Assembly: GCF_023555055.1 (NCBI RefSeq)
Contig: NZ_JAMJPL010000004.1
Coordinates: 1-64,000, forward strand
DNA from: Marinobacter sp. ATCH36
GTDB taxonomy: Bacteria; Pseudomonadota; Gammaproteobacteria; Pseudomonadales; Oleiphilaceae
Direction: 5' to 3'
DNA length: 64,000 nucleotides
Within the stretch, counting starts at the first letter, position 1. The number at the start of each line of letters is the position of its first letter. Under the pieces are notes generated by a model. That model was not told where the DNA came from. It searched no databases and worked only from the letters and a program-made list of their open reading frames with translations. Both the position numbers and the translations under genes were made by a program. Shown here in pieces: positions 1-19,180 of this stretch.

Positions 1-279
1 TTGACCAAATAACAACCAATGACGCCAATAATTCAGGCATCGCTGGTATCCTTTAGCTTCTCACTCACACTGGTTCTTCCTGGAGCACGTCAGATCACCG
101 GAAAACGGTGTTTCTGGATGGGCACTATCTAGCCAAAGGACGACCGCATAGAAGCCGGATCTCGGCTCCGGGGTGGGGGTCCTTTTCTGCCGGGAAAAAG
201 GTGTCTGAGCAAAGCGAGTTCTTTTTCCCAGAAGAAAAGGACCCCCACTCCGGGGCCAGCCTCCTAATCCAGCCCTGAG
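1..279. other. Non-coding flank downstream of aapP
   Basis: I find no convincing gene here. It holds a short hairpin (CACCG-GAAAA-CGGTG, 96-110) followed by a few T, and from about 168 to 256 the long inverted repeat described as its own entry. Since aapP is transcribed leftwards and stops at 280, this stretch is the 3' trailer of the aap operon. A gene entering from the left edge cannot be excluded. Confidence 0.5.
168..256. repeat. Long hairpin repeat, copy 1
   Basis: Outer arms CCGGGGTGGGGGTCC (about 168-182) and GGACCCCCACTCCGG (about 239-253) are near-perfect inverted repeats. They continue inward through CTTTTCT and GGGAAAAAG on the left, matched by CTTTTTCCC and AGAAAAG on the right. 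The core at 181-239 recurs in reverse orientation at 18999-19057 with about two substitutions and one extra base, although the outer arms there have a different sequence. It sits just past the aapP stop codon. As RNA it would fold into a very long stem, so it could act as a terminator or 3' end stabiliser. No transposase is linked to it. Confidence 0.75.
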
Positions 280-18937: not shown

Positions 18938-18980
18938 TTGTGGCTGGTTACACAGAAGTAGCCTGACAGATCGTGAGGCT

Positions 18981-19110
18981 GGGCCCGCCGCGGGGTACTT
19001 TTTCTTCTGGGAAAAAGAACTCGCTGCGCTCAGACACCTTTTTCCCGGCAGAAAAGGCACCCCACACCGTGCCCGATCTAACTCCGAGGATATACCCCCG
19101 CGGCGGGCCC
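18981..19110. repeat. Long hairpin repeat, copy 2, with outer inverted repeat
   Basis: The core at 18999-19057 is the reverse complement of the core at 181-239, differing at about two internal bases plus one extra T. Here it sits between a 17-bp inverted repeat GGGCCCGCCGCGGGGTA (18981-18997) and its complement at 19093-19110 with one inserted C. The arms are unrelated to the arms of copy 1, but again pair with each other. The element occupies the gap between the convergent genes acnB and putP, in addition to a normal terminator for each. Confidence 0.75.
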
Positions 19111-19120
19111 ACCCCACTAC

Positions 19121-19148
19121 AAAAAAGGGGCCCCCTAAGGAGCCCCTG
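19121..19148 (-). terminator. Rho-independent terminator of putP
   Basis: On the minus strand AGGGGCTCC pairs with GGGGGCCCCT (one G-T pair) over a short TTA loop and is followed by six T. It lies about 33 bases after the putP stop. Confidence 0.85.
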
Positions 19149-19180
19149 TCATTATTCAGAGCGTTATAAGTGCTCTTTTT

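What the first reader, a model, noticed from the sequence alone, without database searches (positions are those of the whole stretch)
168..256. Conserved hairpin core with non-conserved but self-pairing arms, copy 1
The 58-59 base core at 181-239 recurs at 18999-19057 in opposite orientation with few changes. The GC-rich arms outside it are different in the two copies, yet in each copy they pair with each other. This suggests selection for a long stem rather than for one sequence, or insertion of the core into existing palindromes. Both copies lie at the 3' side of genes (downstream of aapP; between acnB and putP).
Basis: partly seen in the sequence, partly recalled or inferred. Interest (0 to 1): 0.6.

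Follow-up and report, generated by a model that had tools for sequence, protein, structure and literature searches.

The report
Repeated mobile-looking hairpin with invariant cap
The two matching hairpins are members of a repeated DNA element, 38 copies in this apparently Marinobacter genome, whose 19-base cap stays the same while its arms change together; the same cap sits on unrelated hairpins in several bacterial phyla, and no published name was found for it.

Summary
The two window copies (162-263, 18975-19076) belong to a family with 38 copies in this genome (genus inferred: Marinobacter); its loop is found in 113 of 124 genomes of the genus. A 19-nt loop, TGTYTGAGCGMAGCGAGTT, and an asymmetric internal loop are near-invariant. 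The outer arms vary but pair with their own partner. Outer-stem exceptions to Watson-Crick pairing are G.T on the loop strand, almost never A.C (31:1), so that strand's fold is what is kept. Copies occur singly or as dimers; 30 of 30 close pairs in five genomes have the same arrangement. In relatives the dimers are ~400-bp units with terminal inverted repeats. At orthologous sites elements are present, absent or flipped. The loop also caps hairpins with unrelated arms outside the genus (68 of 76 places tested). No Rfam family matches; ten literature searches found no description. Best reading: a non-autonomous REPIN/MITE-like element recognised in trans as a folded single strand, probably ssDNA. 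Transposition was not observed and no enzyme was found. A structured RNA, a gene-end role, or arm-to-arm exchange keeping the palindrome remain open.

The parts
162..263 (+). copy 1, whole element (loop strand = +)
164..190 (+). copy 1, 5' outer arm (variable, G-rich then TTTTCT)
   Evidence: fold; variable between copies
202..220 (+). copy 1, apical loop TGTCTGAGCAAAGCGAGTT
   Evidence: near-invariant in 38 copies
232..257 (+). copy 1, 3' outer arm, complementary to 164-190
   Evidence: (I2)
258..275 (+). copy 1, 3' tail (family trend CCAGCCCC-N-CAGGCTAC, degenerate here)
   Evidence: alignment; tail motif with at most one mismatch in 18 of 38 copies
18975..19076 (-). copy 2, whole element between acnB and putP
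19018..19036 (-). copy 2, apical loop TGTCTGAGCGCAGCGAGTT
19092..19115 (+). probable remnant of the 3' arm of a second, opposite copy (relatives have a + copy or a pair here)
   Evidence: by eye against L085 and L100
18910..18939 (+). acnB's own intrinsic terminator, outside the element
19121..19149 (-). putP's own intrinsic terminator, outside the element

Best explanation
It is a non-autonomous mobile-type repeat of the REPIN/MITE sort. Its identity lies in a folded single strand: an invariant 19-nt cap and a conserved asymmetric inner bulge on one strand (the loop strand), on a long stem whose sequence is free as long as it pairs. I propose that an enzyme supplied in trans recognises the cap and bulge on that strand when it is single-stranded, probably as DNA during replication or repair, and cuts or copies the unit. 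The dimer with terminal inverted repeats is then the complete unit and solo hairpins are halves. Shown by sequence: the copies, the near-invariant cap, arm co-variation, strand asymmetry of the outer stem, dimer architecture, and presence, absence and flipping at orthologous sites. Inferred: that copies arose by transposition, that the working molecule is ssDNA rather than RNA, and that an unidentified enzyme recognises it.
For: 38 copies in the genome. Genus: 113 of 124 genomes, 1335 loop matches with up to two mismatches, reversed control 0. Own arms pair better than swapped arms. Outer-stem non-WC pairs on the loop strand, G.T:A.C, scored alike: 31:1 (G000, 38 copies), 28:0 (G010, 33), 15:2 (G001, 20), 9:0 (acnB-site relatives, 18), 6:0 (other families, 55, whose arms are mostly cut short by the strict aligner); the sets are partly related. 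The ratio holds for any start from 16 to 24 nt outside the loop. Close neighbours (under 700 bp) are -/+ in 30 of 30 cases in five genomes. Eight dimers of G065/G081, about 400 bp (one shortened), align end to end with ends near TTGGGCTCCTAGCCTTC / GAAGGCTAGGAGCCCAA. Site 1: present in 7 of the 30 best loci (own included), absent in 23; in L445 it lies between an apparent stop codon and the old terminator. In the 15 tandem settings the loop strand is sense to the genes in 6 and antisense in 9 (my count), so read-through mRNA is not the general working molecule. The cap contains GCGAAGC/GCGCAGC, which I recall as unusually stable DNA mini-hairpins.
Against: No mobilising gene found. Y1_Tnp presence does not track copy number: 63 Y1+ genomes mean 10.5 copies, 61 Y1- mean 11.1, p 0.23; 35 genomes with 10 or more copies have no Y1 hit. 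The one Y1 gene of this genome sits among a different repeat. No target duplication seen at dimer ends, by eye. Some sites are old: all five of one G081/G065 cluster are shared. Flips need no transposase: the whole element at the acnB site (L081-084 and L098 against L085-087), the core alone inside fixed arms at site 1, 3 of 4 dimers between G081 and G065 all fit exchange between inverted repeats. The inner, internal-loop part of the stem does not show the G.T excess: counted from the loop outwards G000 gives 33 G.T to 76 A.C. G.T tolerance fits RNA at least as well as DNA. Among ORFs near 118 pan-bacterial loci I found no shared transposase; the two largest clusters were ORFs overlapping the element mixed with ordinary enzymes, and ABC ATPases. 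Three 1.7-kb copies in G865 that looked autonomous are IS3 or IS481 insertions.
Confidence: 0.47

Rival explanations
1. A structured RNA. The loop strand is transcribed, from its own promoter or by read-through, and the conserved cap binds a protein or RNA; copies spread by recombination or retro-like copying.
For: Strand-specific G.T tolerance of the outer stem, covariation, very strong RNA folds, cap found on paired arms outside the genus.
Against: No conserved promoter noticed by eye in 5' flanks or dimer centres; loop strand antisense to neighbours in 9 of 15 tandem cases (my count); no Rfam family; 0 to 38 copies per species with 11 of 124 genomes having none.
Confidence: 0.25
2. No selection for pairing: palindromes are kept paired by template-switch repair or gene conversion between arms and copies.
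For: In L436 the core is flipped inside arms unchanged from L437 and L438; nearest relatives of some dimers lie at non-orthologous sites and dimers flip, so exchange within and between copies happens.
Against: The asymmetric internal loop persists although arm correction should erase it; outer-stem G.T 31 against A.C 1 is not expected from strand-symmetric repair.
Confidence: 0.13
3. A gene-end element: it terminates transcription or protects mRNA 3' ends, above all between convergent genes.
For: 18 of 38 copies lie between convergent genes; at site 1 six of seven carriers lack the bidirectional terminator that 19 of 23 non-carriers have (the own copy's left side is cut by a contig-end repeat); only 4 of 38 copies have a canonical terminator within 220 nt; in L439 and L441 the 5' arm alone forms a small hairpin followed by TTTTC.
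Against: No T-tract after the whole stem on either strand in the window copies; acnB and putP keep their own terminators around copy 2; with the same detector only 1 of 5 element-free convergent gaps has a terminator, so 4 of 38 is inconclusive. Does not explain an invariant cap or the dimers.
Confidence: 0.1
4. A REP mobilised by the 173-aa REP-associated transposase found in several relatives.
For: In G010, G102 and G042 that gene lies between -/+ hairpins, and 4 of the other 7 such loci have one hairpin; it is a REP_Tyr_transpos (201.6 bits, cut-off 80); 13 genomes that I sorted by eye as having this gene type average 21.9 copies against 9.5 in the others, p 6e-5.
Against: TCGGATTA repeats lie nearer the gene; that comparison is not corrected for kinship; several genomes with 16-35 copies have no Y1 hit, e.g. 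G017, G001, G008.
Confidence: 0.05

Closest known systems
REP / REPIN (GTAG- and CGTC-tagged palindromes)
   Same: Intergenic palindromic repeats, singles and inverted dimers, asymmetric hairpin.
   Different: REPs are 20-40 bp with stems of about 5-13 bp and a tag kept in over 90% of most families (passages of PMC3733652). This is ~100-130 nt per half, ~400 bp per dimer, with free arms and a near-invariant 19-nt cap also found outside the genus; CTAC (complement of GTAG) in only 11 of 38 tails; no linked RAYT required.
MITEs
   Same: Short, non-coding, terminal inverted repeats, dispersed, intergenic.
   Different: No target duplication seen, no parent transposon found; internal strand-specific hairpins.
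ERIC / IRU, Correia/NEMIS, BOX, RUP
   Same: Intergenic hairpin repeats of roughly this size (recalled; search listing only).
   Different: Arms of those are conserved in sequence (recalled); here arms vary compensatorily and mainly the cap is fixed.
Integron attC sites
   Same: Variable but self-complementary arms, folded single strand with asymmetric bulges (recalled).
   Different: No integron context was looked for; not tested.

Membership tests
REP/REPIN | 20-40 bp palindrome with short stem | tested here: not met
   element 102 nt or more, 35 pairs in the counted structure; REP size from PMC3733652 passages
REP/REPIN | terminal GTAG or CGTC tag | tested here: not met
   CTAC (rc of GTAG) in 11 of 38 tails, longer tail motif with at most one mismatch in 18 of 38; CGTC not scanned
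REP/REPIN | inverted dimers | tested here: met
   30 of 30 close pairs -/+ in five genomes
REP/REPIN | associated RAYT flanked by the repeat | tested here: inconclusive
   own Y1 gene has other repeats; no correlation with Y1 genes as a whole; but one RAYT type is bracketed in 3 relatives and its carriers have more copies
MITE | terminal inverted repeats | tested here: met
   dimers in G065/G081
MITE | target-site duplication | tested here: inconclusive
   none seen by eye in eight dimers; no formal scan, no close empty sites compared for dimers
MITE | mobilised by a parent transposon | tested here: inconclusive
   candidate long copies in G865 are IS insertions; no shared transposase near 118 loci
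Intrinsic terminator | stem followed by T-tract | tested here: not met
   window copies, both strands
Rfam families | score above gathering threshold | tested here: not met
   window: only two tRNAs; 20 of the 46 loci fetched from other families: nothing above gathering
attC | RYYYAAC/GTTRRRY boxes and IntI | not tested
   no scan made; feature recalled

The most novel reading that the evidence does not exclude
The capped hairpin is one ancient, pan-bacterial class of strand-specific structural element: a universal 19-nt cap on freely varying arms, read as a folded single strand by a widespread but unidentified factor, and spread across phyla by horizontal movement.
Probability: 0.4. Interest if true: 0.8.

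Novelty: new variant of a known kind. Interest (0 to 1): 0.6.

Why it matters
As far as I know, most intergenic repeat families are bound to a genus or order and conserved in sequence. Here the arms are free, mainly a small cap and a bulge are fixed, and the same cap recurs on paired arms from Marinobacter to Lachnospiraceae, Bacteroidetes, Desulfuromonadales and others. That points to a common recognising factor. Finding it would reveal either a new mobilising enzyme or a new widespread nucleic-acid-binding factor, and the cap gives a ready bait.

Tried and rejected
RAYT as the driver: looked decisive in G010 (Y1 gene between two hairpins), then weakened by nearer TCGGATTA repeats and by lack of correlation with Y1 genes as a whole. 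Autonomous copies in G865 with 1.7-kb spacing: IS3 and IS481 insertions. Fixed orientation towards the neighbour's 3' end: 29 of 38 at first sight, but 9 of 15 in tandem contexts, so dropped (my counts). Terminator density near copies: baseline too poor.

Mismatch counts: a first, loose aligner that ran into tails and internal loops gave more A.C than G.T in four of five sets (G.T:A.C G000 80:201, G010 61:185, G001 54:86, acnB 54:59; other families 180:118). The stricter aligner, counting from 20 nt outside the loop, is the result reported. With that aligner and no cut the internal loop brings A.C back (G000 33:76, G001 19:20, G010 29:55, acnB 12:11, other 15:1); from 16 nt outwards the excess of G.T is stable. 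The pan-bacterial set, internal loops included, gave 45:27 over 77 places.

RNAalifold on the 38 copies found only the inner stem and part of the loop, with the outer arms out of register in that alignment. One search used wrong coordinates and was ignored. Rows left out of A2: L088, L093 and the second L100 copy, for indels or divergence. In one search two of four G081/G065 region pairs gave no alignment; they appear to have been paired wrongly by me (compare) and carry no information. Plasmid and phage BLAST of copy 1: no match. Viral contigs: Marinobacter-type pattern 0; bare loop 66 stretches, of which by my reading 13 have an arm score of 7 or more and 53 have 4.5 or less, mostly repeats of a few prophage junctions. 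Literature: ten searches; loop strings gave no relevant paper. Only PMC3733652 was opened, as found passages.

Full report
What is there. Copy 1 (162-263, loop strand +) and copy 2 (18975-19076, loop strand -) match over 102 nt at 85%. The window is contig 21 of a 4.29-Mb, 26-contig genome that holds 38 copies. No tool names this genome; named records with the same kind of element are Marinobacter, so I take the genus to be Marinobacter. By eye each copy has an outer stem of roughly 15-30 pairs, an asymmetric internal loop, an inner stem of about 7-9 pairs and the loop GTGTCTGAGCGMAGCGAGTTC with few changes.

Arms. Scoring each 5' arm against its own and up to 15 sampled other copies' 3' arms gave 16.4 versus 8.1 in this genome, own better in 94% of comparisons and 30 of 38 copies better than all sampled swaps; 13.8 versus 6.3 in G001; 16.1 versus 7.8 in G010; 7.6 versus 4.9 (72%) in other families, where I cut the arms at fixed distances. 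At the acnB-putP site, 16 aligned sequences keep 92.8% of cells paired against 85.8% shuffled, with 9 pairs changed on both sides and a covariation score of 0.227 against 0.104 (0 of 500); sliding the partner drops pairing to 65.3% or less. Relatedness inflates such shuffles.

Strand. With G.T and A.C penalised alike, outer-stem exceptions on the loop strand were 31 G.T to 1 A.C in this genome, 28:0 in G010, 15:2 in G001, 9:0 among acnB-site relatives and 6:0 in other families. The choice of region matters: the conserved internal loop holds A/C juxtapositions, and counting from the loop outwards gives 33:76 in this genome, while any start from 16 to 24 nt outwards gives 28-32 against 0-2. A looser alignment also gave the reverse. 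I read the outer stem as folded on the loop strand. As DNA, copy 2 folds at -28.6 on that strand and -21.1 on the other; copy 1 at -36.2 and -34.1.

Dimers. In five genomes (for G010 the 32 listed places of 38) every pair of loops closer than 700 bp is -/+ (30 of 30). In G065 and G081 eight such dimers align end to end as units of about 400 bp, one shortened, with terminal inverted repeats, two different hairpins and a variable centre. In G865, another family, the fetched pairs are +/-.

Sites. Copy 2's site: acnB and putP each keep their own terminator and the element lies between. Of the 30 best loci, L081-L098 (18) carry a copy within 420 nt of acnB; L100 has a pair, L105 only a loop-like remnant, L108 only arm-like remains; several of the rest are not followed by putP. 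The whole element is turned round between L081-L084 with L098 and L085-L087. Copy 1's site: 7 of the 30 best loci carry it (own included) and 23 do not; of those 23, 19 have a hairpin-plus-T terminator in the gap, while of the 7 carriers only L445 keeps it, with the element between an apparent stop codon and the terminator. In L436 the core is turned round inside arms that read as in L437 and L438. This is the clearest sign of gain or loss at a fixed place, but carriers may be related to one another.

Neighbours. 18 convergent, 15 tandem, 3 divergent, 2 contig edge, against 19, 55 and 27 gaps of at least 60 nt in the same loci, element-bearing gaps included (home-made gene caller). In tandem settings the loop strand is sense in 6 and antisense in 9, my count.

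Spread. Genus 113 of 124 genomes, control 0. In the class 26 of 369 genomes with up to two mismatches, reversed control in 4 genomes by my reading. In the phylum 19 of 398 with an exact loop, control 0, all within the same class. Of 84 places in the listed loci with at least 30 nt on both sides, 76 have arm complementarity above the best of 20 shuffles; eight of the 84 are Marinobacter, which leaves 68 of 76 outside the genus. With 20 shuffles about one in twenty would pass by chance, and some records are metagenome bins that may be contaminated.

What moves it. The own Y1 gene sits among TGGGGTCTGACCCCA repeats. Y1 genes as a whole do not track copy number, but carriers of one RAYT type, sorted by eye, have more copies (21.9 against 9.5, p 6e-5, uncorrected for kinship). 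That 173-aa gene is flanked by hairpins on both sides in three genomes and on one side in four more of ten such loci, with other repeats nearer to it. Four of 14 genomes of other families that carry the loop have no Y1 hit. No shared transposase was found near 118 loci.

Conclusion. The sequence evidence shows a repeated, dimer-forming element whose folded loop strand is conserved. Mobility, ssDNA as the working form and an enzyme in trans are inferences. The ten searches listed under Tried and rejected found no description of this loop in print; most subscription papers were not searchable.

Noticed in passing
window 1-139: 98% identical stretch also at G000:C20:471773-471909 and G000:C23:3-134, and the same sequence near the far end of contig C21: probably an insertion-sequence end at which the assembly breaks, cutting copy 1's left neighbour.
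   Followed up: no
G000:C21:285192-285518 (L050): The genome's only Y1_Tnp hit sits among TGGGGTCTGACCCCA palindromes, a separate REP-like family.
   Followed up: no
L111 1700-3250: REP-associated tyrosine transposase (173 aa) between an SDR-like gene and a permease (names by eye), with many TGTCGGATTA..TAATCCGACCTAC repeats.
   Followed up: partly
L105 and L108, acnB downstream gap: One relative keeps only the loop without arms, another only collapsed arms (GGGGGGGTACCCCGCC): perhaps slippage products of the palindrome.
   Followed up: no
L481, L482, L483: Three dimers of G865 are interrupted by IS3 or IS481 family insertions.
   Followed up: yes
L370, L372, L376 and similar viral contigs: Many viral contigs carry TGTTTGAGCGAAGCGAGTT without arms at a few recurring junctions; possibly an attachment site at a gene end.
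   Followed up: no
G000:C11:273671-274511 (L031): A small gene that looks like nirD (name recalled) is bracketed by -/+ hairpins; similar 540-560 bp spacings occur in G001, G002 and G008.
   Followed up: no
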